The position numbers were made by a program, and so were the translations under genes. The notes under the pieces were generated by a model, which was not told where the DNA came from, ran no database searches, and saw only the letters and a program-made list of their open reading frames with translations. This document shows, one piece after another, positions 37,229-52,576 of a stretch of 64,000 nt of DNA (its first letter is position 1; every line of letters begins with the position of its first letter). Origin of the DNA: Catellatospora bangladeshensis (lineage in GTDB: Bacteria > Actinomycetota > Actinomycetes > Mycobacteriales > Micromonosporaceae); the NCBI RefSeq assembly GCF_016862575.1, contig NZ_BONF01000020.1:124001-188000 (forward strand). The letters run 5' to 3'.

Positions 37229-37300
37229 GCGGGCCGGTGGCCGGCGAGATCGCGCCACGGCGCGGGCTAGGCTTGGGCGTCCGCGACGAGGGGGATGTCA

Positions 37301-38659
37301 GTGATCAGCGTATTCGACCTGTTCAAGATCGGTATCGGGCCGTCGAGCTCGCACACGGTCGGGCCGATGCGCGCAGCGCAGATCTTCGCGTCCGGGCTGA
37401 AAGCGGATGGAAAGCTGCACGAGGTCGCCTCGGTGCGCGCCGAGCTGTTCGGCTCGCTGGGCGCCACCGGCCACGGCCACGGCAGCGACAAGGCGGTGCT
37501 GCTCGGCCTGTCCGGCGAGGACCCGGAGACGGTCGACACGGCCACCGCCGACGCCCGCTTCACGGCGATCAAGGATGCCGGACGGGTGTGCCTGGTGGGC
37601 GTGCACGACGCGGCCTTCGAGCTGACCCTGCACCGCCGCCGCTCGCTGCCGTACCACCCGAACGGGATGACCTTCGCCGCCTTCGACGCGGCGGGCACGA
37701 CGCTGCGCGAGCGCACCTACTACTCGGTGGGCGGCGGCTTCGTGGTGGACGAGAACGCGGCCGGCGCCGACCGGATCAAGGCCGACGACACCCCGGTGCG
37801 CTTCCCGTACCGCACCGGCGCCGAGCTGCTGGCGCTGACCCGGGACACCGGCCTGCGGATCAGTGACATCGTGCTGGCCAACGAGCTGTCCTGGCGCTCG
37901 GAGGCCGACGTGCGGGCGGGGCTGCTGCGCATCTGGCAGGTCATGCAGGACTGCGTCGAGGCCGGCTGCTCCAACGAGGGCACCCTGCCGGGCGGCCTGA
38001 AGGTGCGCCGCCGGGCCGCCGAGCTGCAGCGCACGCTGTCGAAGGAGCACTTCGCGACCGACCCGCTGCGGGTCATGGACTGGATCACCCTGTTCGCGCT
38101 GGCCGTGAACGAGGAGAACGCGGCCGGCGGCCGGGTGGTCACCGCGCCGACCAACGGCGCGGCCGGCATCGTGCCCGCGGTGCTGCACTACTACGCCCGC
38201 TTCGTGCCCGGCGCGAACGAGGACGGCGTGGTGCGCTTCCTGCTCACCGCCGCCGCCATCGGCGTGCTGTTCAAGGAGAACGCCTCCATCTCCGGCGCGG
38301 AGGTCGGCTGCCAGGGCGAGGTCGGCTCGGCGTGCTCGATGGCGGCTGCCGGCCTGGCCGAGGTGCTGGGCGGCAACCCGGCGCAGGTGGAGAACGCCGC
38401 GGAGATCGCGATGGAGCACAACCTGGGGCTGACCTGCGACCCGGTCGGCGGCCTGGTGCAGATCCCGTGCATCGAGCGCAACGCCGTCGCGAGTGTGAAA
38501 GCGATCACCGCGGCCCGGATGGCGCTGCGTGGTGACGGTAATCACTTCGTCTCCCTGGACAAGGTGATCAAGACCATGCGGGAGACCGGTGCGGACATGA
38601 AGATCAAGTACAAAGAGACCGCGCGGGGCGGTCTCGCCGTAAATGTGATCGAATGTTGA
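37301..38659 (+). CDS. sdaA: L-serine ammonia-lyase, single-chain Fe-S type
   Basis: About 452 residues. The beta domain opens with [21 protein letters not shown]. The alpha domain has the cysteines expected for the 4Fe-4S cluster in [13 protein letters not shown] and [18 protein letters not shown]. It deaminates serine to pyruvate. GTG 37301 is preferred since GAGGGGG lies 6 nt upstream; ATG 37295 directly abuts that site. TAGGCT (37268-37273) is a candidate -10. Confidence 0.94.
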
Positions 38660-38697: not shown

Positions 38698-38818
38698 TAG
38701 CCTTGTGCCCGCCACGTCCGGACCACGCAGCCGGGCGTAGGACCCTATGACCCCGTGTGCGCGGCGTCCGTCGACTACCGTGATCGGGAATTGGCTTGTG
38801 AGCAGCAGGGAGGCCGGG

Positions 38819-39628
38819 TTGACCTCGAGTATCGCGGCGGTGTGGAGTCATCGCAGCGTGCTTCGCCTGCTGGTGCAGCGCGACCTGACCGTCAAGTACC
38901 AGCAGTCCGTGCTGGGCTACCTGTGGTCGCTGATCGAGCCGCTGACCATGGCGGCGATCTACTACTTCATCTTCGGCGTGCTGTACGGCGGTGGCCGCGA
39001 CGGCATGAGCGGCACCGACTACATCATGTTCATCCTCTCCGGCATCTTCGCCTGGATGTGGGCGAACAGCGCGATCAGCGAGTCGACCAGCGCCCTCGTG
39101 TCGCAGGCCCGCATGATCACCACGATCAAGGTGCCCCGGGAGATCTTCCCGCTCGGCCGGGTCATCGGCCGCTTCGCCGAGTACGTCGCCGGCCTGCCGA
39201 TCCTGATCCTCGGCGCGGTGATCTTCAAGGCCGACTTCGGCTGGCACACGCTCTACGCGCTGCCGCTGGCCGTCATCGTGCAGGCGATCTTCCTGGTCGG
39301 CATCTCGCTGATGCTGTCCGCGCTGAACGTGATGCTGCGCGACGTGGAGCGGTTCATGCGGCTGGCACTGCGGATCCTGTTCTACGCCGCGCCGATCATC
39401 TACCCGCTGAGCCAGGTCACCAACTCGGACATGCCGCAGTGGGTCAAGATCGTCTATCAGGCGGACCCGCTGGTGGGCATCTTCCAGCTGCACCACGCCG
39501 CCTGGTTCGCCAACGAATGGCCGTCGCCGGCGCTGCTGGCCACCTCGATCGGCGGGAGCCTGCTGGTCTTCCTGTTCGGGTGGCTGATGTTCCGCAAGCT
39601 TGAGCCGTCGGTGCTGAAGGAGCTGTGA
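38819..39628 (+). CDS. ABC-2 type polysaccharide exporter permease (Wzm/TagG-like)
   Basis: 269 residues with six hydrophobic segments. The N-terminus VWSHRSVLRLLVQRDLTVKYQQSVLGYLWS is diagnostic of ABC-2 permeases exporting O-antigen or teichoic acid chains. TTG 38819 is chosen because GGGAGG lies 5 nt upstream and the start then matches relatives; ATG 38747 and GTG 38798 are in frame. The ATPase gene overlaps its stop by 4 bp. It begins the glycan locus and should carry the finished undecaprenyl-linked polymer across the membrane. Confidence 0.9.
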   Translation: MTSSIAAVWSHRSVLRLLVQRDLTVKYQQSVLGYLWSLIEPLTMAAIYYFIFGVLYGGGRDGMSGTDYIMFILSGIFAWMWANSAISESTSALVSQARMITTIKVPREIFPLGRVIGRFAEYVAGLPILILGAVIFKADFGWHTLYALPLAVIVQAIFLVGISLMLSALNVMLRDVERFMRLALRILFYAAPIIYPLSQVTNSDMPQWVKIVYQADPLVGIFQLHHAAWFANEWPSPALLATSIGGSLLVFLFGWLMFRKLEPSVLKEL

Positions 39629-40383
39629 CCGTGTCCGACCCCATCATCAGCGCCCGCGGCCTCGGGGTCCGCTTCAACAAGGGCCGCCGCCGCAACCTGC
39701 GGGTGCGCGAGATGCTCTTCTTCGGCAGCAAGCGCGACCCCAACAAGACCGAGGACAGCTTCTGGCCGCTGCGCGACCTGTCCTTCGACATCCGCCCGGG
39801 TGAGGCCGTCGGCATCATCGGCAAGAACGGCACCGGCAAGAGCACGCTGCTCAAGATGATCGCGGGCGTGCTCATCCCGGACGAGGGCACCGTCGAGGTG
39901 CACGGCAAGGTCGCCCCGCTGCTGGAGCTGTCGGCCGGCTTCTCCGGCGACCTGACCGGCCGCGAGAACGTCATGCTGGTCGGCGCCCTGCACGGGATGA
40001 GCCAGAAGACGCTCAAGGCGAAGTTCGACGAGATCGTCGACTTCGCGGGCGAGCAGGTGGCGCGCTCCATCGACTCGCCGGTGCGGCACTACTCCTCCGG
40101 CATGAAGGTGCGGCTCGGCTTCGCTGTGATCGCGCAGCTGTCCCACCCCATCCTGCTGGTGGACGAGGTGATGGCCGTCGGCGACGCCGAGTTCCGCAAA
40201 AAGTGCTACGGCACGATGGAGAAACTGCTGGCAGAAGGCCGCACGCTCGTCCTCGTGTCGCACAATGAAGGGGACCTCACCCGCTTCTGCACGCGCGGGC
40301 TGTACATCAACGGCGGTCGGCTGACCGTCGACGGCACGGTGCAGGAAGCGCTCGACGCCTACAAGGGACTGGTTCGTACGTGA
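39625..40383 (+). CDS. ABC exporter ATPase for a polysaccharide (Wzt/TagH-like)
   Basis: 252 residues. Walker A GKNGTGKST, signature YSSGMKVRL (the non-LSGGQ form typical of Wzt/TagH), Walker B ILLVDEVMAVGD and the switch histidine in LVSHNEGD. There is no C-terminal carbohydrate-binding domain like that in chain-length-sensing Wzt proteins. It is coupled by GTGA overlaps to the permease upstream and to the polymerase gene downstream (40380). Confidence 0.92.
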   Translation: MTVSDPIISARGLGVRFNKGRRRNLRVREMLFFGSKRDPNKTEDSFWPLRDLSFDIRPGEAVGIIGKNGTGKSTLLKMIAGVLIPDEGTVEVHGKVAPLLELSAGFSGDLTGRENVMLVGALHGMSQKTLKAKFDEIVDFAGEQVARSIDSPVRHYSSGMKVRLGFAVIAQLSHPILLVDEVMAVGDAEFRKKCYGTMEKLLAEGRTLVLVSHNEGDLTRFCTRGLYINGGRLTVDGTVQEALDAYKGLVRT

Positions 40384-42554
40384 CACTGCTGAGCGTGGTC
40401 CTGCCCGCCTACCGCGTGCAGGGCTACCTCAGGCAGTGCCTCGATTCCATCCTCGACCAGGGCTTCGACGACGTCGAGGTGATCGCGGTCGACGACCGCT
40501 CACCCGATCACTGCGGCGAGATCCTCGACGAGTACGCCGCCCGCGACCCCCGCGTCACCGTGCTGCACCTGCCCGAGAACGTGGGCCTGGGCCACGCCCG
40601 CAACGCGGGGCTGGAGCGGGCCACGGGCGAGTACGTCTGGTTCGTGGACAGCGACGACGCGCTCAAGCCGGGCTCGCTGGCGGCGATCGCGGCGCGGCTG
40701 CGGGTGGACCAGCCCGACGTGCTGATCGTCGACTTCGAGCGGCTCTGGCCGGTCGGCAAGGGGCGGCGCAGCGGCATGCGGCGCCAGCTCGCCCGCCAGC
40801 CCGGACCCGACGGCGTGGACATCACCGCCCGGCCGGTGCTGATCAAGACCATCCACACCGTGTGGAACAAGATCGTCCGCCGCAACCTGCTGGTCAAGCT
40901 GGACCTGCGGTTCGGCACCGGCTGGTACGAGGACGTCTCCTGGACGTACCCGCTCATGGCCGCCGCCGAGCGGATCTGCGTGCTGGAACGCAACTGCTAC
41001 TCGTACCGGCAGCGCCGGGTCGGCGCGATCACCCGCACCCAGGACGCCCGGCACTTCGAGCTGTTCGACCACTGGGAACGGGCCTGGCAGCTCATCGACG
41101 GGCTCGGGCCGCGCGCCGACGAGGTCCGTCCGCTGATCTTCGAGCGCATGATCTGGCACTGCATGACCGTGGTCGGCAACGACCACCGGCTGCCCCGGCG
41201 GCTGCGCCGGCGCTGCTTCCTGCGCATCGCCGACATGTTCGACCGCTACCTGCCGCCCGGCGGGTACGCCGAGCCGCCCGGCAAGGACGGCCTGCGCTAC
41301 CGGCTCGTCGCGCGGCGGGCGTGGGCGCCGTACTGGCTGATGCGCTCGCTGACCCGCCTCGGGCGGCGCACGGCGGCGACGGCCCGGACGGTGCGCGCGG
41401 CGGTGCCCAAGGTCGCCGGGCGGCTGCGCAAGGGACCTTCCGGCCTGCTCGGGCGCGCCTACTACGAACTCCAGCGGCTGCTCCCGGTCGACGACAAGCT
41501 CGCCCTGTACGCGGCGTACTGGTATCGCGGGGTGTCCTGCAACCCGGCCGCCGTCTACCACGAGGCGCGGCGGCTGGCGCCGGACGTGCGCGGGGTGTGG
41601 CTGGTCCGGCGGGAGTCGGCGGACCGGATCACCGACGGCACGCCGGTGCTGCACGACGGCTCGCGGGCCGCGTTCCGGGCGCTCGCCCGCGCCCGCTACC
41701 TGGTCAACAACGTGAACTTCCCGAACTACGTACGCAAGCGCCGCGGCCAGGTCTACCTGCAGACCCACCACGGCACGCCGATCAAGACGATGGGCCTGGA
41801 CCAGCAGTACCACCCGGCCGGCGCGGGCATGGACTTCGAGGCGATGCTGCGCCGCTGCGACGCGTGGGACTACAGCGTCAGCGCGAACGCGTTCAGCACC
41901 GAGATGTGGGAGCGGTCGTACCCGTGCCGCTTCGAGGCGCTGGAGACCGGCTACCCGCGCAACGACCGGCTGGCCCGCGCCGACGCGGCGGACGCGGCGG
42001 CGGCCCGCGCGGCGCTGGGCATCGCCCCGGACCGGGTGGTGGCGCTCTACGTGCCGACGTTCCGGCCGGAGCCCATGACGCTGCCCGCGTTCGACCCCCG
42101 GGCGGTGGCCGACGCGCTCGGCCCGCACGGGCTGGTGCTGGTGCGCGGGCACTACCTCACCGACGACCGCTTCCCCGGCGGCGACCAGGTGCGCGACGTG
42201 TACGACCACCCGGTGGTCGAGGACCTCTACCTCGCCGCCGACGTGCTGATCAGCGACTACTCCTCGGCGGTGTTCGACTTCGCGGTGCTGGACCGGCCGA
42301 TCGTGCTCTACACCCCCGACTGGGACGAGTACCGCCGCAACCGGGGCGTGGTGTTCGACGTGGTCGCCCAGCCGCCGGGCCCGGTCGTCCGGGACCTCGG
42401 CGAACTGGTGACGCTGCTGCGGGAGGGCCGCCAGGGCGAGGACGCCGAGCTGCGCCGCGCGTTCCGGGAGCGGTTCTGCGCCTGGGAGGACGGGCACGCC
42501 GCCGAGCGGGTGGTGCGCCGGGTGTTCCTGGGCGAGCGGGCGAACACCCGGTGA
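40380..42554 (+). CDS. two-domain GT2 glycosyltransferase / CDP-glycerol glycerophosphotransferase (TagF-like)
   Basis: 724 residues. The N-terminal GT-A family 2 domain (1 to about 240) has SVVLPAYRVQGYLRQCLDSI and the metal-binding DSDD (D90-D93). The C-terminal Glyphos_transf domain (about 360-720) has YLQTHHGTPIKTMG, the ETGYPRNDRL block and the SDYSSAVFDFAVL donor-binding block that defines TagF-type polymerases. It probably adds sugar and polyol-phosphate units to a teichoic-acid-like chain. It is the third gene of the exporter operon. The donor (CDP-glycerol or other) is not provable from sequence. Confidence 0.87.
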   Translation: MTLLSVVLPAYRVQGYLRQCLDSILDQGFDDVEVIAVDDRSPDHCGEILDEYAARDPRVTVLHLPENVGLGHARNAGLERATGEYVWFVDSDDALKPGSLAAIAARLRVDQPDVLIVDFERLWPVGKGRRSGMRRQLARQPGPDGVDITARPVLIKTIHTVWNKIVRRNLLVKLDLRFGTGWYEDVSWTYPLMAAAERICVLERNCYSYRQRRVGAITRTQDARHFELFDHWERAWQLIDGLGPRADEVRPLIFERMIWHCMTVVGNDHRLPRRLRRRCFLRIADMFDRYLPPGGYAEPPGKDGLRYRLVARRAWAPYWLMRSLTRLGRRTAATARTVRAAVPKVAGRLRKGPSGLLGRAYYELQRLLPVDDKLALYAAYWYRGVSCNPAAVYHEARRLAPDVRGVWLVRRESADRITDGTPVLHDGSRAAFRALARARYLVNNVNFPNYVRKRRGQVYLQTHHGTPIKTMGLDQQYHPAGAGMDFEAMLRRCDAWDYSVSANAFSTEMWERSYPCRFEALETGYPRNDRLARADAADAAAARAALGIAPDRVVALYVPTFRPEPMTLPAFDPRAVADALGPHGLVLVRGHYLTDDRFPGGDQVRDVYDHPVVEDLYLAADVLISDYSSAVFDFAVLDRPIVLYTPDWDEYRRNRGVVFDVVAQPPGPVVRDLGELVTLLREGRQGEDAELRRAFRERFCAWEDGHAAERVVRRVFLGERANTR

Positions 42555-42605
42555 ACGTTTCCGAACGTGCCCTCTAGGGGCGTTTGTGCTGGGTAGGGTG
42601 TCCGC

Positions 42606-43157
42606 GTGCTCCGTTACGCGACACCTGAGGATCGTGACGAGGTGTTGCGCTGGCGCAACCACCCCCAGGTCCGCCGGGCCAGCCTGACCACCCACGTGAT
42701 CGAGCCCGCCGAGCACGCCGCCTGGTGGGACGCGGTCGCCCTGGACCCGCTGCGCCACGTGCTGGTCTTCGAGTGGCGCGGCCGCCCGTCCGGCGTGGTC
42801 ATGTTCGACGGCCGCCGCTCGGCCGAACGCGGCGTGATCTGGGGCTTCTACCTCGACGTCGACGGCCTCACCGGGCGCGGCGAGCTGCTCCCCGCGTGGC
42901 TTGAGCTGGAGCGGGAGGCGGTGGACTTCGCCTTCGACACCCTCGGCGTGGACCGGCTCGGCGGCGAGACGCTGGCCTGGAACACCCCCGTGCTGCAGCT
43001 GCACCGCCGGTTCGGGTTCACCGCGACGCGCCGGTACGAGTGCGTGATCGACGGCGAGCCGCAGGAGGTCGTCTGGACGGAGCTGGCCGCCGCCGACCGG
43101 CGCGGCCCTCGTGGAACGGAACGGAGTGCGGCGCATGCCCACCATCAAGATCGGTGA
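42606..43157 (+). CDS. pseH: GNAT N-acetyltransferase, probable PseH (pseudaminic acid pathway)
   Basis: 183 residues of the GNAT fold in the PseH style: LRYATPEDRDEVLRWRNHPQVRRASL at the start and FDTLGVDRLGGETLAWNTPVLQLHRRFGF near the end. PseH acetylates the 4-amino group of UDP-4-amino-4,6-dideoxy-AltNAc. The adjacent pseI and nearby pseB, pseC and pseG support this call. The GTG is leaderless, with TAGGGT 6 nt upstream, so pseH-pseI has its own promoter. The last 20 residues are low-complexity and overlap the pseI start. Confidence 0.85.
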   Translation: MLRYATPEDRDEVLRWRNHPQVRRASLTTHVIEPAEHAAWWDAVALDPLRHVLVFEWRGRPSGVVMFDGRRSAERGVIWGFYLDVDGLTGRGELLPAWLELEREAVDFAFDTLGVDRLGGETLAWNTPVLQLHRRFGFTATRRYECVIDGEPQEVVWTELAAADRRGPRGTERSAAHAHHQDR

Positions 43158-44184
43158 TCACCTCGTCGGGCCGGAGCACCGCCCCTTCGTCATCGCGGAG
43201 ATGTCGGGCAACCACAACGGTTCGCTCGACCGCGCCCTGCAGATCGTGGACGCGGTCGCCGCGAGCGGCGCGCAGGCGCTCAAGCTGCAGACGTACACGC
43301 CGGACACGATCACCATCGACGTGGACGCGCCCGCGTTCCGCATCTCCGACGAGCACGGCCTGTGGGGCGGAGAGAACCTCTACGCCCTCTTCCAGCGCGC
43401 GCACACGCCGTACGAGTGGCACCCGGCGATCTTCGAGCGGGCCCGGCGGCAGGGGCTGACGGTGTTCTCCTCGCCGTTCGACCACACCGCGATCGAGCTG
43501 CTGGAGTCGCTGCAGACGCCCGCCTACAAGATCGCCTCTTCGGAGCTGGTGGACCTGCCGCTGATCCGCCTGGCGGCGAGCACCGGAAAACCGATGATCA
43601 TTTCAACGGGTATGGCCTCCGTCGGCGACATCCACGCCGCCGTCGAGACCGCGCGCGCGGCGGGCAACGACCAGATCGTCCTGCTCGCCTGCACCGCGTC
43701 CTACCCGTCGCCGCCGCAGGACAGCAACCTGCGCCGCATCCCGGTGCTGGCGGAGGCGTTCGGGACCCAGGTCGGCCTGTCCGACCACACCATGGGCATC
43801 GGCGTGCCGGTGGCCGCGGTGGCGCTGGGCGCGACCGTCATCGAGAAGCACGTGACCCTGGACCGGGCCGACGGCGGCGTCGACTCGGCGTTCTCTCTCG
43901 ACCCCGGCGAGCTGGCCGCGCTGGTCGCCGAGAGCGAGCGGGCCTGGCAGGCGCTCGGCGGCACCCGGATCGGCCCGACCGACAGCGAGAAGGAGGGGCT
44001 GCGCTTCCGCCGCTCCCTCTACGTGGTCGCTGACGTGCAAGCCGGTGACCTGGTCAGCGCCGACAACGTGCGCTCCATCCGCCCCGCCGGCGGCCTGCCC
44101 CCCGCCGAGATCGACAACGTCCTGGGCCGCCACTTCACCCGCCCCGCCACCAAGGGCACCCCCCTCACCTGGGACCTGGTGTAG
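43135..44184 (+). CDS. pseI: pseudaminic acid synthase
   Basis: 349 residues. The NeuB barrel opens with FVIAEMSGNHNGSLDRALQIVDA and KLQTYTPDTITID, wording typical of PseI rather than of NeuB or LegI; SDHTMGIGVPVAAVALGA and EKHVTLDR follow. A C-terminal SAF (antifreeze-like) domain spans about 290-349. It condenses 6-deoxy-AltdiNAc with phosphoenolpyruvate. ATG 43135 (MPTIKIGDH) is preferred; GTG 43111 is in frame. It overlaps the pseH tail by 23 bp, and a hairpin follows the gene. Confidence 0.92.
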   Translation: MPTIKIGDHLVGPEHRPFVIAEMSGNHNGSLDRALQIVDAVAASGAQALKLQTYTPDTITIDVDAPAFRISDEHGLWGGENLYALFQRAHTPYEWHPAIFERARRQGLTVFSSPFDHTAIELLESLQTPAYKIASSELVDLPLIRLAASTGKPMIISTGMASVGDIHAAVETARAAGNDQIVLLACTASYPSPPQDSNLRRIPVLAEAFGTQVGLSDHTMGIGVPVAAVALGATVIEKHVTLDRADGGVDSAFSLDPGELAALVAESERAWQALGGTRIGPTDSEKEGLRFRRSLYVVADVQAGDLVSADNVRSIRPAGGLPPAEIDNVLGRHFTRPATKGTPLTWDLV

Positions 44185-44557
44185 CCCCAGCGCCCGCCAC
44201 GGCTTCGCCGCCGCGGCCCGCCCCTCGCGCGGCGGCGGGGGATCGTCGGACGGATTCTGGGCTTTTCGCGGCGGGGAGGCCGGGAAAGGCCCAGAATTCT
44301 TTGTATCGCGTCTCTCGGGGGCGCCATTCGCCGGTCTCGTTAACCGGTTCTATAAGCGCGCGGCGCGTGCTGTTAACGCGCTGTTCGGCATCGTGGAAAC
44401 GATCCTCGATCGTCCGTGTTGAACACTGGGGAAACTTCGCATTGCAAGCGTATCCAGGCGCTGGATCTGCGATTATGTTGGCACGGCACCGGATTCTCAC
44501 CGGCCGCCTGGCACCTTTCTCGTCGGGCGATTTCCATTGACGTGCAAGGAGCGACAA
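44185..44557 (+). promoter_or_regulatory. 370-bp intergenic region: pseI terminator and pseB leader
   Basis: The left part holds the pseI hairpin; from about 44290 the base composition is clearly lower in GC than the flanks, as expected of a promoter/5'UTR. Candidate elements: GTTAACCGGTT (44339-44349), TTGAAC (44419-44424) and TATGTT (44474-44479). No -35/-10 pair with correct spacing stands out. AGGAG at 44547-44551 is the pseB Shine-Dalgarno. No convincing small gene is seen. Confidence 0.5.
44252..44304 (+). terminator. terminator of the pseI unit
   Basis: ATTCTGGGC (44254-44262) pairs with GCCCAGAAT (44289-44297), extended by CTTTT/GAAAG-type pairs, and is followed by a T-rich TTCTTTGTAT tail. 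Confidence 0.6.
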
Positions 44558-45541
44558 GTGAGTGTGCTGCGGGGTTCGTCCATTCTGATCACCGGTGGCA
44601 CGGGTTCGTTCGGCAAGGCGTTCCTGCGGTACGCGCTGGAGCACCTGGACCCGAAGCGGCTCGTGGTCATCTCGCGGGACGAGCTGAAGCAGTACGAGGT
44701 CCGCCAGATGTTCGGCAACGACGAGCGGCTGCGCTGGTTCATCGGGGACGTGCGCGACCGCGAGCGGCTGACCCGGGCGATGCACAACGTCGACTACGTG
44801 GTGCACGCGGCGGCGCTCAAGCAGGTGGACACGGCCGAGTACAACCCGTTCGAGTTCGTGCGCACCAACGTCGGCGGCTCGCAGAACGTCATCGAGGCCG
44901 CGATCGACAACGGGGTGCAGAAGGTCGTCGCCCTGTCCACCGACAAGGCGTCCAGCCCGATCAACCTGTACGGCGCGACCAAGCTCGTCGCCGACAAGCT
45001 GTTCATCTCGGCCAACCACTACGCCGCCAACCACCCGACCCGCTTCTCGGTGGTGCGCTACGGCAACGTGATGGGCAGCCGCGGCTCGGTGGTGCCGCTG
45101 TTCAAGCAGCTCCAGGCCGAGGGCCAGAGCCTGCCGGTGACCGACAAGCGGATGACGCGCTTCTGGATCACGCTGGAGGCGGCGGTGAAGTTCGTCGTCG
45201 ACTCGTTCGACCTGATGAACGGCGGTGAGCTGTACGTGCCGCGCATCCCCAGCATGCGCATCCTGGACCTGGTCGAGGCGGTCGCGCCCGGCGCGCCGAT
45301 CCACGAGATCGGCATCCGCCCCGGCGAGAAGCTGCACGAGGAGATGATCGCCCTCGGCGACGCCCACCGGACCCTGCGCCTGGCCGACCGGTACGTGGTG
45401 CAGCCGACCATCGCCGAGTGGGGTTACGTGCCGCCGGCCGACGGGGCGACGGTGCCGGAGGACTTCAACTACCGCTCCGACAACAACGACATGTGGCTCG
45501 GCGTCGACGAGATGCGCGACCTGCTCGGCGCCGACGCCTGA
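44558..45541 (+). CDS. pseB: UDP-GlcNAc 4,6-dehydratase (5-inverting)
   Basis: 327 residues of the extended SDR family in the PseB/FlaA1 style: ITGGTGSFGKAFLRYAL nucleotide-binding loop, VISRDELKQYEVRQMF, AAALKQVDTAEYNPFE, the LSTDKASSPINLYGATKL active-site block and RYGNVMGSRGSVVPLF. It makes UDP-2-acetamido-2,6-dideoxy-beta-L-arabino-hexos-4-ulose, the first step to pseudaminic acid. GTG 44558 is fixed by AGGAG 6 nt upstream. It is the first gene of the second pse unit. Confidence 0.94.
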   Translation: MSVLRGSSILITGGTGSFGKAFLRYALEHLDPKRLVVISRDELKQYEVRQMFGNDERLRWFIGDVRDRERLTRAMHNVDYVVHAAALKQVDTAEYNPFEFVRTNVGGSQNVIEAAIDNGVQKVVALSTDKASSPINLYGATKLVADKLFISANHYAANHPTRFSVVRYGNVMGSRGSVVPLFKQLQAEGQSLPVTDKRMTRFWITLEAAVKFVVDSFDLMNGGELYVPRIPSMRILDLVEAVAPGAPIHEIGIRPGEKLHEEMIALGDAHRTLRLADRYVVQPTIAEWGYVPPADGATVPEDFNYRSDNNDMWLGVDEMRDLLGADA

Positions 45542-45570
45542 CGGCCGCCCTCGGGCGAGAGGAAGGAACC

Positions 45571-46695
45571 ATGCTTCCCTACGGACGGCAGTCGATCACC
45601 GACGCGGACGTGGCCGCGGTCGCCGAGGTGCTGCGCGGTGACTGGCTCACCACCGGCCCGCAGGTCACCGGGTTCGAGGAGGATCTGGCCGGGTGGACCG
45701 GCGGGGTGCCCTGCGCGGTGGTCAGCAACGGCACGGCGGCGCTGCACACGGCGTACGCGGCGGCGGGCATCGGCCCCGGCCACGAGGTGGTCACCACACC
45801 GATGACCTTCGTGGCGACCGCCTCCACCGCGATCGCGCAGGGCGCCACCGTGGTCTTCGCCGACGTGGAGGAGGACACCGCCAACCTGGACGCGGCCGCG
45901 GCCGCCGCCGCGGTGACCTCGCGCACCCGGGTGATCACCGCGGTGGACTACGCCGGGCACCCCGCCGAGTACGACGACCTGCGCAAGGTCGCCGACGACG
46001 CGGACGCGCTGCTGATCGCCGACGCGGCGCATGCCATCGGCTCGGTGTACCGGGAGCGCCCGGTCGGCTCGCTGGCCGACCTGACCACGTTCTCGTTCTT
46101 CCCGACCAAGAACCTGACCACGGCCGAGGGCGGTGCGGTCGCCGCGGCCGACCCGGCCCGGCTCACCGCCGCGAAGCGGTTCCGCGGCATCGGCATGGTG
46201 CGCGAGCGCGACGAGCTGCGCGAGCCCGACGAGGGCGGCTGGCACCAGGAGGTGCACACGTTCGGGCTGAACTACCGGCTGCCCGACGTGCTGTGCGCGC
46301 TGGGCCGCAGCCAGCTGCGGCGGCTCGCCGCGTTCAAGGCGCGCCGGGCGGAGCTGACCGCCCGCTACAACGAGGCCCTGGCCGGGGTGCCCGGCCTGCG
46401 GGTGCCGGTGCAGCGGGCCTGGGTCGACCCGGCCTGGCACCTCTACCCGGTGCGGGTGCTGGACGGCCGCCGCCGCGAGGTCTACGACGAGCTGCGCGCC
46501 GCGGGCATCGGGGTGCAGGTCAACTACATCCCGGTGTACTGGCACCCGGTCTTCGCCGACCTCGGCTACCGCCGGGGCATGTGCCCCAATGCCGAGCGCT
46601 TCTACGCCGAGGAGCTGTCGCTCCCGCTGTTCCCGGACCTCACCGACGCCGACCAGGACCGCGTGATCGACGCGCTGGTCACGGCGCTGCGCTAG
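45571..46695 (+). CDS. pseC: UDP-4-amino-4,6-dideoxy-N-acetyl-beta-L-altrosamine transaminase
   Basis: 374 residues of the DegT/DnrJ/EryC1 PLP aminotransferase family. LPYGRQSITDADVAAVAEVLRGDWLTTGP is the PseC-type opening. The PLP lysine is in FFPTKNLTTAEGG, and DAAHAIGS supplies the cofactor aspartate. VNYIPVYWHPVFADLGY near the C-terminus is a PseC-like substrate loop. It aminates the C4 keto group of the PseB product. It lies 29 bp after pseB with a GAGGAAGG Shine-Dalgarno. Confidence 0.93.
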   Translation: MLPYGRQSITDADVAAVAEVLRGDWLTTGPQVTGFEEDLAGWTGGVPCAVVSNGTAALHTAYAAAGIGPGHEVVTTPMTFVATASTAIAQGATVVFADVEEDTANLDAAAAAAAVTSRTRVITAVDYAGHPAEYDDLRKVADDADALLIADAAHAIGSVYRERPVGSLADLTTFSFFPTKNLTTAEGGAVAAADPARLTAAKRFRGIGMVRERDELREPDEGGWHQEVHTFGLNYRLPDVLCALGRSQLRRLAAFKARRAELTARYNEALAGVPGLRVPVQRAWVDPAWHLYPVRVLDGRRREVYDELRAAGIGVQVNYIPVYWHPVFADLGYRRGMCPNAERFYAEELSLPLFPDLTDADQDRVIDALVTALR

Positions 46696-46726
46696 GCCGA
46701 TCCGACCCCTCTCCTCAGGACGACTC

Positions 46727-47575
46727 GTGCATCACGCGAACCACTTCTACGGCCACGCGCAGGTGCTCGCCCGGTACTGCGACCTCGGCGAGCTGGACGC
46801 GCCGCCGCGCATGCTCGGCTACCTGCAGCACGGCTGGAACATCGGCGACGGGCTCGCGCCCGGCACGCCGTACGTCGAGGGCGCCCCGATCTTCGTGTGG
46901 TCCGAGCAGACGCGCCGCCGGGCGTGGTCGCTGGGCCGCCGCAACGTGACCGTGGTCGGCGCCCCCTGGATCTACCTGCTGGCCCTGGAGCCGGAGGCGC
47001 CGGACGCGCCGCCCCGCGAGGGCACCGTCTGGTACCCGTTCCACGGCTGGGAGGGGCAGGAGGTCAAGGGCGACCACCGCCGCCTCATCGCCACCATCAA
47101 GGACGTCGAGGAGGGGCCGGTCACCGTCTGCCTGTACTGGGCGGAGTTCCAGACCCGGCGCATCCGCCGCCTCTACGAGCGGGCCGGCTTCCGCGTCATC
47201 TGCCACGGCTACCGGGGGCACTGGTGGCGGCAGACCAACCCGGACTTCCTGCTCGGCCAGCTCACCGAGCTGCGTAAGCACAAACGCGTGGCGTCCAACC
47301 GGGTCAGCAGCGCGCTGTTCTACGGCCTGGCCGCAGGCTGCGAGTCGGCCGTGTACGGCGACCCGATGGTGCTGCACGCCGAGGACCCGACGTTCGGCGG
47401 CGTGGCCCGCATCCGGCGGCAGTGGCCGGAGCTGCACGGCACCCACGTCGACCACGCCGTGGCCCGCGCCATCGCCGACGACGAACTCGGCACGGCCTAT
47501 CTCACCTCACCCGCGTCCCTGCGCCGCCTGTTCGGCTGGGAGCACCTCCACACCCCCGCAGGAGCAGGCCGATGA
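46727..47575 (+). CDS. uncharacterised glycan-locus protein, possible GT-B-like transferase
   Basis: 282 residues, not assigned to a family with confidence. It has no signal peptide or membrane helix and looks like two alternating alpha/beta lobes. It contains LGYLQHGWNIGDGL and VWSEQTRRRAWSLGRRNVTVVGAPW in the first half and ASNRVSSALFYGLAAGCESAVYGDPM in the second. The last is reminiscent of the Ser-rich donor-binding helix turn in GT-B glycosyltransferases. Its position between pseC and the cytidylyltransferase gene makes it a candidate pseudaminyltransferase. A GTG start with AGGA upstream; it overlaps the next gene by 4 bp. Confidence 0.6.
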   Translation: MHHANHFYGHAQVLARYCDLGELDAPPRMLGYLQHGWNIGDGLAPGTPYVEGAPIFVWSEQTRRRAWSLGRRNVTVVGAPWIYLLALEPEAPDAPPREGTVWYPFHGWEGQEVKGDHRRLIATIKDVEEGPVTVCLYWAEFQTRRIRRLYERAGFRVICHGYRGHWWRQTNPDFLLGQLTELRKHKRVASNRVSSALFYGLAAGCESAVYGDPMVLHAEDPTFGGVARIRRQWPELHGTHVDHAVARAIADDELGTAYLTSPASLRRLFGWEHLHTPAGAGR

Positions 47576-49338
47576 GCCCGTCGACCACCACCGTGCCGCA
47601 GAACCTCCGCCTGATCGGCGGCGAGATGCTGGTCTGGACCGATGACGAGCCGGCCGCCGACCGGCGCCCCGCGAGCGGCCCGGCGCTGCAGGAGGTGCTG
47701 CGCGACCTGGTCCGGCCCGGCGGCCGGGCGCTGGTGGCCGGACCGCACGAGCAGGCGCTGATCGGCCTGCTCGCCGACGCGCCGATGCAGGTCACCTGCC
47801 TGGTCCGGGCGTATCCGGACGCCGAGGCGCTGGCCCGGCGGCTGCCCGGGGTGACGGTCCTGTGCGGCAGTGTCGCCAAGCTCGACCCGTCCGACACGTA
47901 CGACCTGGTCGTCGCGTGCGACGGGCTGGACCGGCTGCCCTCGGTCGAGGGGGCCGCGCTGAGCTGGGCGGAGACCGCGGACCTGGTCGCGGCCGCGGTG
48001 CGCCCCGGCGGCACCCTGCTGCTGGCCCAGGAGAACCTGCTCGGCGTGCACCGCCTGGTCCGCATGTCCCCCTGGTACGGCGAGCGCACCGACGCGGACT
48101 GGACGCCGCTCGGCGACTACGACGCCACCCGCCCCGCCTCACCCGGCGAGCTGGTGTCGAGCCTGGCCGGGCGTGGCCTGACCGTCGCCGAGCCGATGGC
48201 GGGCTTCCCGACCGCGCACGAGCCGTCGGTGCTCGCGCCGCTGGATCGGCTGGCCGATCCGCACCTGGCCGGGTTCGTCCGCATCGCGGTGTCCGCCGCG
48301 TACGGCGCCCAGCTCGCCGGCCGCCCGGTGCTCAGCGACCCGCGCGCGCTGGCGGGCAGCGCGCTGCGCGCCGGGTCCGCCGCCGAGTTCGCGCCGGTCT
48401 GGCTGGTGGCCGCGACCCGCGCCGGGGCGCTCATCCCGCGCCAGCGCGTGGTCGTCGCCGACGCGGCCACGGTGCCCCACCCGGTGCGCTACGAGGTGGT
48501 CCGCGCCGAGCACGGCTGGTCCCGCCACGTCCTCGGCGACACGGCGCTGCGCAGCCGCGACGGGGTGTACCGGGACCCGGCGGCGCTGGCCGGGCCGCTG
48601 CCGCGGGGCAGGCTGCTGGAGGAGCAGCTGATCGAGCTGTGCCTGCGCCGTGACCTGCCCGAGCTGGCCCGGGTGCTGACCCGCTACGCCGCCTGGCTGG
48701 CCGAGGGCGCGGGCGAGGACGGCACGGTCGGCGGTGTGTCGCTCTGGGCGAGTCCCGGCGACCTGCTGCTGGACGGCGACGGCTTCACCCCGTGGGACCC
48801 GACCTGGTCCACCACCGTGCGCGCCCCGCTGGACGTGGCGCTGGCCCGGTCGCTGCGGACGTTCGCGGTACGCCTGATCACCGGCGGCTACTCGCACCCG
48901 TGGCCGATGCTGGTCGACGCGGACTCCCTGGTGGTGATCCTCGCGGGCATGGCGGGGCACACCCTGGAGCGGCCCGTGCTGGCCGCCGCCGTCGACCTGG
49001 AGGCGCGCCTGCGCGCCGCCGCGCACGGCCTCGACGAGGCCGGCCGCGAGCGGCTGCGCGACCGGCTGGCCGCGGTCACCCCCGGCACCCCGCCGCTCGA
49101 CCTGGACAGCCACCGGGAGCTGCACGCCGCCAACGACCGGCTGCGCGAGGAGCTGGCCCACGCCGTGTCGCGGGTGGCGTGGGCCGAGGAGCTGCTGGAA
49201 TCACGGGAGAAGGCGCTCCGGCACGCCGAGGACAAGCTCGACATCCTCAGCGGCTCGTTCAGCTTCCGGCTGGGCAAGCTGCTGATCTACCCGCTGCGCA
49301 AGGCCAAGGGCCTGGCCAAGCGGCTGCTGCGGCGCTGA
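47572..49338 (+). CDS. methyltransferase-like protein with C-terminal coiled coil, glycan locus
   Basis: 588 residues. The N-terminal third (about 40-165) has a Rossmann-like SAM methyltransferase layout (LVRPGGRALVAGP glycine region, DLVVACDGLDRLP, VRPGGTLLLAQENLLG). The glycine-rich motif I is degenerate, so activity is uncertain. The middle is unrecognised. The C-terminus has a heptad-like helix (about 535-565) followed by SGSFSFRLGKLLIYPLRKAKG, an amphipathic basic tail common on actinobacterial wall-glycan enzymes that probably touches the membrane. ATGA overlap with the preceding gene fixes the start. Confidence 0.65.
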   Translation: MSPSTTTVPQNLRLIGGEMLVWTDDEPAADRRPASGPALQEVLRDLVRPGGRALVAGPHEQALIGLLADAPMQVTCLVRAYPDAEALARRLPGVTVLCGSVAKLDPSDTYDLVVACDGLDRLPSVEGAALSWAETADLVAAAVRPGGTLLLAQENLLGVHRLVRMSPWYGERTDADWTPLGDYDATRPASPGELVSSLAGRGLTVAEPMAGFPTAHEPSVLAPLDRLADPHLAGFVRIAVSAAYGAQLAGRPVLSDPRALAGSALRAGSAAEFAPVWLVAATRAGALIPRQRVVVADAATVPHPVRYEVVRAEHGWSRHVLGDTALRSRDGVYRDPAALAGPLPRGRLLEEQLIELCLRRDLPELARVLTRYAAWLAEGAGEDGTVGGVSLWASPGDLLLDGDGFTPWDPTWSTTVRAPLDVALARSLRTFAVRLITGGYSHPWPMLVDADSLVVILAGMAGHTLERPVLAAAVDLEARLRAAAHGLDEAGRERLRDRLAAVTPGTPPLDLDSHRELHAANDRLREELAHAVSRVAWAEELLESREKALRHAEDKLDILSGSFSFRLGKLLIYPLRKAKGLAKRLLRR

Positions 49339-49351
49339 AGGGGGACCTCGC

Positions 49352-50080
49352 ATGCGGATGCTCGGCGTGATCCAGGCCCGGATGGGCTCCACCCGGCTGC
49401 CCGGCAAGGTGCTGCGGCCGCTGGCGGGCAGCACCGTGCTGGGCCGGGTGGTCCGCGCCGCCCGGGAGAGCGGCGCGGTCGACGAGCTGGTGGTGGCGAC
49501 CACGACCGAGGAGGCCGACGACGCGGTCGTGGCCGAGTGCGCGCGGCTGGGCGTGGCCTGGCACCGCGGCCCGGTCGACGACGTGCTGACCCGCTTCCTG
49601 GGCGCGCTCGACGCCCACCCGGCCGACGCGGTCATGCGGTTCACCGCGGACTGCCCGCTGCTGGACCCGGACATCGTCGCGCTGGGCGGGCGGGTGTTCC
49701 GCGCCGTGCCGGGGCTGGACTACCTGAGCACGTCGCTGGCCCGGATGCTGCCGCGCGGGCTGGACGTCGAGGTGATCCGGGCGGACACGCTGCGCACGCT
49801 GGACACACTCGCCACGGAGCACCACCGGGTGCATGTGACGTCGTACGCGTACACCCATCCGGACCGGTTCCGGGTGCTGGGCCTGACCCTGCCGCCGGAC
49901 CGCACCGGCCTGCGGCTGACCCTGGACACGCCGGAGGACTGGCTGCTGGTCGAGGCGGTGGTGGCGGAGTTCGGCGACAGCAGCGTGCCGCTGGCCAAGC
50001 TCGCTGAGTGGCTGTCGGCGCACCCGGAGGTGGTGGCGTACAACGCACATGTGGAGCAGAAGGCGCTGGAGCGGGGATGA
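49352..50080 (+). CDS. pseF: SpsF/PseF-like cytidylyltransferase
   Basis: 242 residues of the NTP-transferase fold: IQARMGSTRLPGKVLRPLAG (the SpsF-type nucleotide-binding opening), VVATTTEEADDAVV, MRFTADCPLLDPDIV and LTLDTPEDW. In this context it most likely activates pseudaminic acid to CMP-Pse. It belongs to the SpsF branch rather than to the classical NeuA/PseF branch, so the assignment relies on neighbours. GGGGGACC precedes ATG 49352; ATG 49358 is also possible. It overlaps pseG by 4 bp (ATGA). Confidence 0.8.
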   Translation: MRMLGVIQARMGSTRLPGKVLRPLAGSTVLGRVVRAARESGAVDELVVATTTEEADDAVVAECARLGVAWHRGPVDDVLTRFLGALDAHPADAVMRFTADCPLLDPDIVALGGRVFRAVPGLDYLSTSLARMLPRGLDVEVIRADTLRTLDTLATEHHRVHVTSYAYTHPDRFRVLGLTLPPDRTGLRLTLDTPEDWLLVEAVVAEFGDSSVPLAKLAEWLSAHPEVVAYNAHVEQKALERG

Positions 50081-51141
50081 CGCCGGTCCGCGTCGGGCTG
50101 CGCTGCGACGCCGGGGCCACCCGGGGCGTCGGCCACCTGGTGCGCTGCGTCGCGCTGGCCGAGGAGCTGGCGGGCCGGGGCGTGCGGCCGGTGTTCCTCG
50201 GCGACACCGGCGGCCTGCCCTGGGCAGAGGAGCAGCTGGCCAGGCGGGGGTTCGCGCGGGTGCCCGGACCGGACACACCGGACGGTGCCGTCGCGGCCGT
50301 CAAGGAGCACGGGCTGGCCGCGATGGTGCTCGACTCCTACACCCTCGATCCGGCCTGTGCCGGCGCCCTGCGGGAGCGGGGCGTGCCGGTGCTGGCCGTG
50401 GTCGACGGCGACCTGCGCGGCCAGGACGCCGACCTCTACCTTGACCAGAACCTCGACGCCGAGCTGGCCGCGCCCCCGCTGCCGCCGGACGCGGTCCGCC
50501 TGGCCGGCCTGCGCTACGTGCTGCTGCGCGACGACGTGCTGCGCCTGCGGCCCAGGGCGCCGGTCCGCCATCCGGGCGCGGCCCGGCCGAAGGTGCTCGC
50601 CTTCTTCGGCGGCACGGACGCGTTCAGCGCGGCGCCGCCGCTGTGCCGCTTGGTGCTGGGCACCGGCCTGCCGCTGGAGCTGACCGTGGTGGCGGGCACC
50701 CCCGCGCTGCACCGGCAGCTGCTGTCCCTGCCGGTGGGTGCTGATCAGGCGATGCACGTGCTGGCGCCGACGGACCGGCTGCCCACGCTGGTCGCGCAGG
50801 CCGATCTCGTGGTGAGCGCGTCGGGCACCTCGACCTGGGAGCTGCTGTGCCTCGGCGCGGCGGCCGCGCTGGTGTGGGTCGTCGACAACCAGGAACTCGG
50901 TTATGAACGGGTTGTTGCCCGGGGACTGTCCGCGGGGTTGGGCCATCTGTCCGACCTGACCGATCCGGACGGTTCGCATGCCGTTGCCGCCCGTGACACA
51001 TTGCGACGGCTTCTGTCTTCCCCGAACGCCCGCGCCGCGGCCTCCGCGCGGGCTCTTGGCGCAGTAGACGGGCTTGGTCGGGCCCGTGTGGCGGATGAGC
51101 TGCTCGCTCTCGTCGCCTCCCGCCGCCATCACTCAGCGTGA
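50077..51141 (+). CDS. pseG: UDP-2,4-diacetamido-2,4,6-trideoxy-beta-L-altropyranose hydrolase
   Basis: 354 residues with a GT-B (GT28/MurG-like) fold: RCDAGATRGVGHLVRCVALAEEL (PseG opening with the catalytic-type His), VDGDLRGQDADLYLDQN, a FFGGTDAFSAAP donor loop and ASGTSTWELLCLGAAAALV. PseG releases UDP to give 6-deoxy-AltdiNAc for PseI. ATG 50077 is fixed by the ATGA overlap with the cytidylyltransferase gene. Last gene of the pse locus. Confidence 0.9.
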   Translation: MTPVRVGLRCDAGATRGVGHLVRCVALAEELAGRGVRPVFLGDTGGLPWAEEQLARRGFARVPGPDTPDGAVAAVKEHGLAAMVLDSYTLDPACAGALRERGVPVLAVVDGDLRGQDADLYLDQNLDAELAAPPLPPDAVRLAGLRYVLLRDDVLRLRPRAPVRHPGAARPKVLAFFGGTDAFSAAPPLCRLVLGTGLPLELTVVAGTPALHRQLLSLPVGADQAMHVLAPTDRLPTLVAQADLVVSASGTSTWELLCLGAAAALVWVVDNQELGYERVVARGLSAGLGHLSDLTDPDGSHAVAARDTLRRLLSSPNARAAASARALGAVDGLGRARVADELLALVASRRHHSA

Positions 51142-51271: not shown

Positions 51272-52576
51272 GTGACTACCGTCGCGCTCAAAGACGTCAC
51301 CAAGGTGTTCCCTGATGGGACGGTGGCGGTGGACAACGTCAGCCTCGATGTGGCTGACGGTGAATTCATGGTTCTCCTGGGACCCTCCGGCTGTGGCAAG
51401 TCCACTGTGCTACGGATGATCGCTGGACTGGAGGATCCCACCACTGGTGCGATCATGCTCGACGGCCAGCTGGCCAACCAGCTGCCGCCGCGTGATCGCC
51501 GGATTGCGATGGTCTTCCAGGACTTCGCGCTCTACCCCCACATGACCGTGGGCGAGAACATCGGCTTCCCGCTGCGGCTGTCCGGCGTCGAGCCGGAGCC
51601 GCGGGCGGAGCGGGTCGCCGACGTGGCCAGCGCCCTGGGCATCGGCGACGTGCTGGGCCGCAAGCCCAGCCAGCTGTCCGGCGGCCAGCGCCAGCGGGTG
51701 GCCATGGGCCGCGCCATCGTGCGCCGCCCCGGGCTCTTCCTGATGGACGAGCCGCTGTCCAACCTGGACAGCGGTCTGCGCGCCGAGCTGCGCGCCGAGA
51801 TCTCCGGCCTGGTCCGCGAGCTGGGCGTCAGCACCGTGTACGTCACGCACGACCAGGCCGAGGCGCTGACCATGGCCGACCGCGTGGCCATCATGCGCAA
51901 GGGCGTCCTGCAGGACGTGGGCACCCCGACGCAGGTGTACGGCAAGCCGGCCACCCTCTACGTCGCCGCGTTCCTCGGCAGCCCGCGCATGAACCTGCTG
52001 GAGGCGTCGGTCTACGTGCACCTCGACCGCTACGTCCAGCTCAACCTGGGCGAGCAGTCGCTGTACCTCAAGTGGGACGACATCCGCGCCCGCGCCGTGT
52101 CGCACTTCCACGGCGAGCGCATCGTCATCGGCGTACGCGCCGAGGCGATCACGCCCGTGGCGCCCGACACCCCGGGCGACGTGCTGCAGGGCCGCATCCG
52201 CTACCTGGAGCACCACGGCCACGAGTCGCTGGCCTTCGTCGACATCGGCGCGACCGCCGTCGTCGTCGACGAGATCGGCCGCTCCGCCGCCGAGGCCGAG
52301 GAGCATGGCTCCCGGCTGCGCCGCTTCGGCCACGTCATCAACCGGATGAAGGGCCGGAGCAACGGTGGCGCGACCACCGTCGCCGAGCGCCCTGCCCAGC
52401 GGGAGAGCGTTCTCTCCGACCCGGGCCGCCACCACCGGCGCGCCGCCGAGCTCGCGGTGCGGCTCGCGCCGTACCCGCAGATCAGCTCCGGGCACCCGCT
52501 GTCCATCGCGGTCCGCATGGACGCGCTGCACTTCTTCGACGAGCGGGGCGACCGGATCGACGTCGGGTGGCGTTGA
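51272..52576 (+). CDS. sugar-type ABC transporter ATPase (MalK/MsiK/UgpC-like), orphan
   Basis: 434 residues. Walker A GPSGCGKST, Q-loop VFQDFALYPHMTVGEN, signature LSGGQRQR, Walker B LFLMDEPLSNLD and switch His in VTHDQAEAL. The C-terminal regulatory (TOBE/MOP) region (about 240-434) is longer than in MalK and divergent. No permease or binding protein is adjacent, so it may energise several sugar importers, as MsiK does in Streptomyces. GGGAGGAG 5 nt upstream supports GTG 51272. A 61-bp palindrome follows it. Confidence 0.88.
   Translation: MTTVALKDVTKVFPDGTVAVDNVSLDVADGEFMVLLGPSGCGKSTVLRMIAGLEDPTTGAIMLDGQLANQLPPRDRRIAMVFQDFALYPHMTVGENIGFPLRLSGVEPEPRAERVADVASALGIGDVLGRKPSQLSGGQRQRVAMGRAIVRRPGLFLMDEPLSNLDSGLRAELRAEISGLVRELGVSTVYVTHDQAEALTMADRVAIMRKGVLQDVGTPTQVYGKPATLYVAAFLGSPRMNLLEASVYVHLDRYVQLNLGEQSLYLKWDDIRARAVSHFHGERIVIGVRAEAITPVAPDTPGDVLQGRIRYLEHHGHESLAFVDIGATAVVVDEIGRSAAEAEEHGSRLRRFGHVINRMKGRSNGGATTVAERPAQRESVLSDPGRHHRRAAELAVRLAPYPQISSGHPLSIAVRMDALHFFDERGDRIDVGWR

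What the first reader, a model, noticed from the sequence alone, without database searches (positions are those of the whole stretch)
38819..51141. Complete CMP-pseudaminic acid pathway beside a polysaccharide exporter and a TagF-like polymerase in an actinomycete
Seen: pseH, pseI, pseB, pseC, an SpsF/PseF-like cytidylyltransferase and pseG, with a Wzm/Wzt-type exporter and a GT2-TagF fusion, all on one strand in two tightly packed units. Known: this enzyme set makes CMP-Pse in Gram-negatives and some Bacillus, and nonulosonic-acid wall polymers (teichulosonic acids) have been described chemically in some actinomycetes. Inference: this locus makes and exports such a polymer. Gene order and the two unknown embedded proteins look unlike the flagellin-modification clusters, where no exporter is expected.
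Basis: partly seen in the sequence, partly recalled or inferred. Interest (0 to 1): 0.8.

Follow-up and report, generated by a model that had tools for sequence, protein, structure and literature searches.

The report
Pseudaminic-acid wall-polymer locus in an actinomycete
An actinomycete carries a gene set for making a rare sialic-acid-like sugar beside wall-polymer genes, and the set travels with an undescribed protein that may be the missing enzyme attaching this sugar to the cell surface.

Summary
The genes are real and in the stated order. PseB and PseI pass curated cut-offs; PseC, PseH and PseG are best matches below theirs; the cytidylyltransferase fails the PseF model. "CMP-Pse made for an exported wall glycan" stands, with two changes. 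(1) The GT2-TagF protein is not Pse-specific: all 9 sampled congeners lacking the pathway keep it between the same flanking genes, while Wzm, Wzt, the pse genes and both unknown proteins are missing there. TagF is better read as backbone polymerase, with Pse added. (2) The unknown Unk1 (46727-47575) is the most interesting part. Among 300 family genomes (Micromonosporaceae), all 135 with PseI have it; 2 more have it without a full PseI, both in fragmented assemblies. It has no significant Pfam, NCBIfam or PDB match and comes in up to 5 copies against 1-2 of PseI, so a new pseudaminyltransferase is the best guess; no structure could be predicted. In the genus, Pse-less species carry a teichuronic-acid-like locus with its own exporter (6 of 6 regions read, of 9 genomes): the packages look interchangeable. 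No flagellin was found. All functions are inferred.

The parts
38747..39628 (+). Wzm-type ABC-2 permease (start uncertain, possibly near 38858)
   Evidence: PF01061 4.2e-11
39625..40383 (+). Wzt-type ATPase, 252 aa, 4-base overlap with Wzm
   Evidence: PF00005 1.9e-20
40380..42554 (+). GT2-TagF fusion, 724 aa; kept in Pse-less congeners
   Evidence: PF00535 1.2e-35, PF04464 2e-113
42606..43157 (+). PseH-like N-acyltransferase
   Evidence: TIGR03585 78.7 bits, cut-off 93.1
43135..44184 (+). PseI, pseudaminic acid synthase
   Evidence: TIGR03586 468.8 bits, over cut-off; PDB 8h2c 1.4e-78
44185..44557 (.). 373-bp gap between the two units; extra genes sit between PseI and PseB in many Micromonospora loci
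44558..45541 (+). PseB, inverting UDP-GlcNAc 4,6-dehydratase
   Evidence: TIGR03589 493.1 bits, over cut-off; PDB 2gn4 1e-109; T-x9-Y-x3-K
45571..46695 (+). PseC-like aminotransferase
   Evidence: TIGR03588 398.2 bits, cut-off 423.5
46727..47575 (+). Unk1, 282 aa, candidate pseudaminyltransferase
   Evidence: co-occurrence with PseI; no family match
47572..49338 (+). Unk2, 588 aa, partner of Unk1, weakly methyltransferase-like
   Evidence: follows Unk1 in 69 of 78 called Unk1 ORFs; PF13489 weak match in 9 of 44 relatives
49352..50080 (+). SpsF/PseF-like cytidylyltransferase
   Evidence: PF02348 1.6e-25; fails the PseF model
50077..51141 (+). PseG-like UDP-sugar hydrolase
   Evidence: TIGR03590 124.2 bits, cut-off 153.55

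Best explanation
The locus makes CMP-pseudaminic acid (PseB, PseC, PseH, PseG, PseI and an SpsF-like CMP transferase). Unk1, with its partner Unk2, uses CMP-Pse to put Pse on a wall-polymer precursor whose backbone is made by the neighbouring GT2-TagF protein, possibly with CDP-ribitol from a separate locus of the genome. The Wzm/Wzt pair exports the Pse-bearing polymer. Exporter, pathway and Unk1/Unk2 form one accessory package that stands in place of a teichuronic-acid-like package found in sister species. Shown: gene content, presence/absence pattern, co-occurrence. Inferred: every enzyme activity, the transferase role of Unk1, the acceptor, the export step and attachment to the wall.
For: Pse rather than Leg or Neu pathway by model scores and PDB matches. 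Locus with the same flanks in G341 (96-100%) and, without PseH/PseF, in another genus, G302 (41-87%). PseB-PseC-Unk1 consecutive in 54 and the order PseB-PseC-Unk1-Unk2-PseF-PseG in 46 of 80 named genome loci. Unk1 in 135 of 135 genomes with PseI over cut-off, of 300; 1-5 Unk1 matches against 1-2 PseI matches per genome, as expected of a transferase. A TagF-like ORF directly upstream of PseI/PseH in 40 of 57 loci with PseI. 9 of 9 Pse-less congeners keep TagF and lack the rest at that site; they have a different Wzm elsewhere (25-32% identical), with aminotransferase and oxidoreductase genes like utrA/utrB in 6 of 6 regions read. A ribitol-phosphate-cytidylyltransferase-type fusion plus a TagF-like gene at G000:C30 (name from its Micromonospora homologue). 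No flagellin found.
Against: Unk1 shows no detectable similarity to a glycosyltransferase and its fold is unknown. Unk1 also stands away from pse genes: 16 of 80 loci have no recognised pse gene, and a second copy in this genome lies near a penicillin-binding-protein gene. Outside the family most PseI genomes lack Unk1: in the phylum sample 9 of 13 over cut-off lack it. One Unk1 genome, G763, has no PseI over cut-off, only a divergent NeuB far away, and the G878 match is partial and weak (1.5e-11). The exporter pair is absent from 17 of 19 other family regions, and was not called in any of the 80 loci, although their flanks are limited to 10 kb. G302 lacks PseH and PseF at the locus. PseC, PseH, PseG and PseF miss their curated cut-offs.
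Confidence: 0.6

Rival explanations
1. True teichulosonic acid: Pse is a main-chain residue of a separate polymer made by the locus, with Unk1 as the polymerising transferase and TagF only a neighbour from the ancestral site.
For: A Kdn-containing main-chain polymer is described for Streptomyces coelicolor (passages of PMC7831098 and PMC11481543). Exporter and pse genes are absent together in 9 of 9 congeners while TagF stays, as if they made a polymer independent of TagF.
Against: A TagF-like ORF is directly upstream of PseI/PseH in 40 of 57 loci with PseI, which points to a functional link with TagF. Apart from the GT2 domain of TagF and possibly Unk1, the locus has no other recognisable sugar transferase.
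Confidence: 0.22
2. The Pse goes on surface proteins or another glycoconjugate, and the exporter neighbours by chance; Unk1 is then a protein Pse transferase.
For: Unk1 copies occur far from polymer genes; exporter linkage is missing in 17 of 19 other family regions.
Against: No flagellin in this genome; exporter and pse genes present or absent together at the site in 11 of 11 genomes of the genus (with the window); Wzm/Wzt beside pse genes in 9 of 12 regions outside the family.
Confidence: 0.1
3. Unk1 is not a transferase but a Pse-modifying or quality-control enzyme, and an ordinary glycosyltransferase (for example the GT2 domain of TagF) uses CMP-Pse.
For: No glycosyltransferase similarity in Unk1.
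Against: TagF with its GT2 domain is kept in 9 of 9 Pse-less congeners; more copies of Unk1 than of PseI in many genomes fit a transferase better than a step in making the sugar.
Confidence: 0.2

Closest known systems
CMP-Pse pathway of Helicobacter pylori / Campylobacter (PseB, C, H, G, I, F)
   Same: Five of six steps have their best named match in the Pse models; PseB is nearest to H. pylori 2gn4 in PDB
   Different: The cytidylyltransferase is SpsF-like and fails the PseF model; the genes sit with wall-polymer genes, not flagellar genes
Teichulosonic acid of Streptomyces coelicolor (passages of PMC7831098 and PMC11481543)
   Same: Nonulosonic acid expected in an actinomycete wall glycan
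   Different: Pse instead of Kdn; polymer chemistry unknown here
utr teichuronic-acid-on-teichoic-acid locus of Streptomyces griseus (passages of PMC13274773)
   Same: Variable anionic glycan package in a genome with TagF/TarIJ teichoic-acid genes; the alternative package of Pse-less congeners resembles utrA/utrB
   Different: Nonulosonic acid rather than diacetamido-uronic acid; the word Wzm does not occur in that paper's text
KpsS1 pseudaminyltransferase of Acinetobacter baumannii, GT118 (one passage of PMC12887879)
   Same: Would use the same donor, CMP-Pse
   Different: No direct comparison made (no KpsS1 sequence at hand); Unk1 has no significant match in Pfam or PDB
sps legionaminic-acid locus of Bacillus subtilis (passages of PMC7439481)
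   Same: SpsF/SpsG-type enzymes with a PseB-like dehydratase
   Different: SpsM has T-x9-M-x3-K and leads to Leg; the window enzyme has Y there, as the H. pylori enzyme does

Membership tests
CMP-pseudaminic acid biosynthesis pathway | PseB inverting dehydratase and PseI synthase over curated cut-off | tested here: met
   493.1/407.75 and 468.8/340.25 bits
CMP-pseudaminic acid biosynthesis pathway | PseC, PseH and PseG present | tested here: inconclusive
   best named match but below cut-off in all three; gene context conserved
CMP-pseudaminic acid biosynthesis pathway | PseF-type CMP-Pse synthetase | tested here: not met
   29.9 vs 205.7 bits; an SpsF-like CTP_transf_3 protein stands in its place
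CMP-pseudaminic acid biosynthesis pathway | the product is CMP-Pse | not testable with these tools
   needs enzyme assay or mass spectrometry
Legionaminic / neuraminic pathways (rival) | better match to LegB, LegC or NeuB models | tested here: not met
   57.5, 165.6 and 280.1 bits, under the Pse models and under their own cut-offs
Flagellin-glycosylation cluster | flagellin gene in the genome | tested here: not met
   0 matches to PF00669 in the own genome; control genomes rang in 4 of 14
Teichulosonic acid locus | nonulosonic acid in the main chain of a wall-bound polymer | not testable with these tools
   no chemistry available
ABC-transporter-dependent polysaccharide export (Wzm/Wzt) | adjacent ABC-2 permease and ATPase | tested here: met
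   polysaccharide as substrate not tested
Glycosyltransferase (for Unk1) | similarity to a known GT family or a GT fold | tested here: inconclusive

The most novel reading that the evidence does not exclude
Unk1 founds a new family of pseudaminyltransferases, tied to Pse synthesis in Micromonosporaceae, and with Unk2, exporter and pse genes it forms an antigen-like cassette that is exchanged with a teichuronic-acid-type cassette on an unchanged teichoic-acid backbone, so that species of one genus differ in surface polymer much as Gram-negatives differ in O-antigen.
Probability: 0.45. Interest if true: 0.75.

Novelty: new variant of a known kind. Interest (0 to 1): 0.62.

Why it matters
The papers I could search gave little genetics for nonulosonic-acid wall polymers of actinomycetes. 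The locus gives a compact, testable gene set, points to an unnamed protein family as the possible Pse transferase, and offers a natural experiment: sister species with and without the package at the same chromosomal site. Exchange of surface-polymer packages would bear on how phages and lectin-bearing toxins recognise filamentous actinomycetes.

Tried and rejected
TagF as the Pse polymerase: rejected as the leading idea, because it stays in 9 of 9 Pse-less congeners.

Flagellin modification: rejected for this organism.

Legionaminic acid by a B. subtilis-like route: disfavoured.

Unk2 as a WbdD-like methyltransferase-kinase chain terminator: an idea from reading the sequence by eye (recalled family); the A2 profile lists no WbdD chain in PDB at E 10 and the glycine motif looks non-canonical, so I do not claim it.

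Remote homology of Unk1 or Unk2 to TagF, PseG, PseF and other cluster proteins by hhalign: none, probabilities 1.2 or less (some alignments were thin, TagF domain 4 rows, one unknown 3 rows).

Promoter and terminator scan: 1 promoter-like site against a mean of 0.4 in shuffles, 2 terminator-like sites against 2.6. Repeats: only diverged or distant copies that I could not interpret (no shuffle control). Rfam at gathering score: two tRNAs in the window.

Literature: nine searches, some with capped lists, showed me no paper on pse genes or Pse in Micromonosporaceae. The library is open-access only, so this is not a claim that none exists.
Full report
What is there. The window lies in an 8.8-Mb, 115-contig genome. 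Eleven + strand ORFs fill 38747-51141 between a gene that I read by eye as a serine deaminase (sdaA, 37295-38659) and one that I read as a sugar-type ABC ATPase (ugpC-like, 51272-52576). Unit one is Wzm, Wzt, GT2-TagF fusion, PseH, PseI; unit two is PseB, PseC, Unk1, Unk2, an SpsF/PseF-like cytidylyltransferase and PseG; 373 bp separate them.

Which sugar. For the steps where NCBIfam has both, Pse models outscore Leg and Neu models. PseB and PseI exceed curated cut-offs; PseC, PseH and PseG do not, and the cytidylyltransferase fails the PseF model. PseB aligns with the H. pylori dehydratase 2gn4 (1e-109) and carries T-x9-Y-x3-K; B. subtilis SpsM, which leads to Leg, carries M at that place (passages of PMC7439481). 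PseI is nearest in PDB to 8h2c, named pseudaminic acid synthase. PseC is nearer in PDB to ArnB-type enzymes than to 2fn6 (that 2fn6 is H. pylori PseC is recalled), though the PseC model scores above the ArnB model (398.2 vs 247.0 bits). PseG had no PDB match at 0.01. CMP-Pse is the likely product (my estimate about 0.9); its acyl groups are not determined.

Conservation. A scan of named genomes with an Unk1 alignment matched 350 stretches, 323 confirmed, of which the best 80 were kept, mostly Micromonospora, Actinoplanes/Paractinoplanes, Salinispora and Hamadaea. PseB-PseC-Unk1 are consecutive in 54 of 80; the order PseB-PseC-Unk1-Unk2-PseF-PseG holds in 46 of 80; 64 of 80 contain some pse gene and 16 contain none (several loci are cut by contig ends). 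No Wzm or Wzt relative was called in those 80. In five Micromonospora-group genomes (g2) whose upstream DNA I fetched, a Wzm/Wzt pair lies about 10-12 kb upstream of TagF on the same strand (5 of 5), followed in the one examined (L142) by an IspD-SDR fusion whose first half is a D-ribitol-5-phosphate cytidylyltransferase by NCBIfam (174.5 bits, cut-off 166). Of 12 pse regions fetched outside the family, 9 have Wzm and Wzt, 2 do not and 1 could not be read. Of 19 further pse regions of the family, only those of G341 and G302 have the pair.

Presence and absence in the genus. Of 11 genomes of the window's genus, 2 (the window's and G341) have PseI and Unk1 and 9 have neither. In all 9 the same flanking genes enclose the TagF gene alone, 66-68% identical to the window's; no Wzm, Wzt, pse gene, Unk1 or Unk2 was found in the fetched stretch. 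TagF differs more between Pse-positive and Pse-less species (65-68%) than the flanks do (91-97%), but the Pse-less species also differ among themselves in TagF (68-94%), so I draw nothing from that. All 9 have a Wzm elsewhere (25-32% identical), while the window genome and G341 show only one each at 1e-5. In 6 of 6 such regions read (6 of the 9 genomes), that Wzm stands with a Wzt, a DegT aminotransferase and a GFO/IDH/MocA oxidoreductase (Pfam on L205 and L206); L205 and L206 also have a UDP-sugar dehydrogenase relative close by (L222 one of only 34% identity), and L205 a TarS-linker GT2. This resembles the utrA-D genes that make the teichuronic-acid-like glycan on teichoic acid in Streptomyces griseus (passages of PMC13274773). 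The 40 kb after the window in the window's genome show none of these genes, although they hold the homologues of genes that flank that locus in the congeners. The Pse locus with the same flanks in a second genus, G302, suggests that the Pse arrangement is old and was lost or replaced, but I did not reconstruct this on a tree.

Unk1. In 300 genomes of the family, the Unk1 profile matched 137 and PseI over cut-off 135; 135 had both, none PseI alone, 163 neither by these criteria (Fisher p 4e-85, not corrected for shared ancestry). The two Unk1-only genomes are G380 (87% complete, PseI seen only as 63-base pieces at contig ends) and G498 (590 contigs). Five genomes with only sub-cut-off NeuB-type matches (G301, G318, G322, G369, G405) have no Unk1. 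An order-wide sample agrees: 28 of 298 have Unk1, all 28 with PseI; 42 of 298 have PseI over cut-off. In a phylum sample 5 of 376 have Unk1 (one, G878, a weak partial match); 4 of the 5 have PseI over cut-off and G763 has only a divergent NeuB; 9 of 13 PseI genomes lack Unk1. So in these samples Unk1 nearly always means Pse, while outside the family Pse does not mean Unk1. Unk1 has no membrane segment by hydropathy, is 60-73% identical across the 80 loci, has many invariant residues, and has no significant Pfam or NCBIfam match and no convincing PDB match (the two PDB matches listed have E 0.14 and 0.82). Copies per genome (1-5) exceed PseI copies (1-2) in many genomes. A donor-specific transferase acting on several acceptors fits best; it remains inference.

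Unk2 directly follows Unk1 in 69 of 78 called Unk1 ORFs (two of the nine exceptions are at a contig end) and is much more variable (27-46%). Nine of 44 relatives match a methyltransferase model weakly (best 0.0024). Its role is open; acceptor recognition or polymer modification are the options I would test.

Model. CMP-Pse made in the cytosol is used by Unk1/Unk2 on a wall-polymer precursor built with TagF, and Wzm/Wzt exports it. Gene content and presence/absence are shown; activities, acceptor and export are inferred.

Noticed in passing
L033:14551-17440 and similar loci: In 34 of the 55 sampled loci with a called PseH, an AMP-ligase gene (in L033 with an acyl-carrier-protein-like gene and a short-chain reductase gene) stands in the locus; PseH there is 48-55% identical to the window's, against 50-65% in the other 21, one of them cut by a contig end. 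This hints at a longer, perhaps hydroxyacyl, N-acyl group on Pse in those species; the window has no such genes in the locus.
   Followed up: partly
L205, L206, L207, L222, L223, L224: Pse-less congeners carry a different exporter with WbpE/WbpB-like genes, a teichuronic-acid-like locus not seen in the 40 kb after the window in the Pse-positive genome.
   Followed up: yes
G000:C32:150310-151116 (L032:9311-12090): A second Unk1-Unk2 pair of this genome lies next to a transglycosylase-transpeptidase (penicillin-binding protein) gene; no pse gene was recognised in the 15 kb read.
   Followed up: partly
L149:14706-16241, L150:14832-16382: Pse clusters of another family (f15) mostly lack Unk1; after PseG these two have a 511-516-aa protein without Pfam match, perhaps a different Pse transferase.
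   Followed up: no
L174: The syntenic locus of G302 has no room for PseH and PseF; G302 has a second PseI elsewhere, whose region showed no PseH or PseF either.
   Followed up: partly
L218: A genome of another family in the same class (G840) has PseB, PseC, Unk1-Unk2, PseI, PseH and an acyl-carrier/ligase/reductase set within 20 kb, with a second, diverged Unk1.
   Followed up: partly
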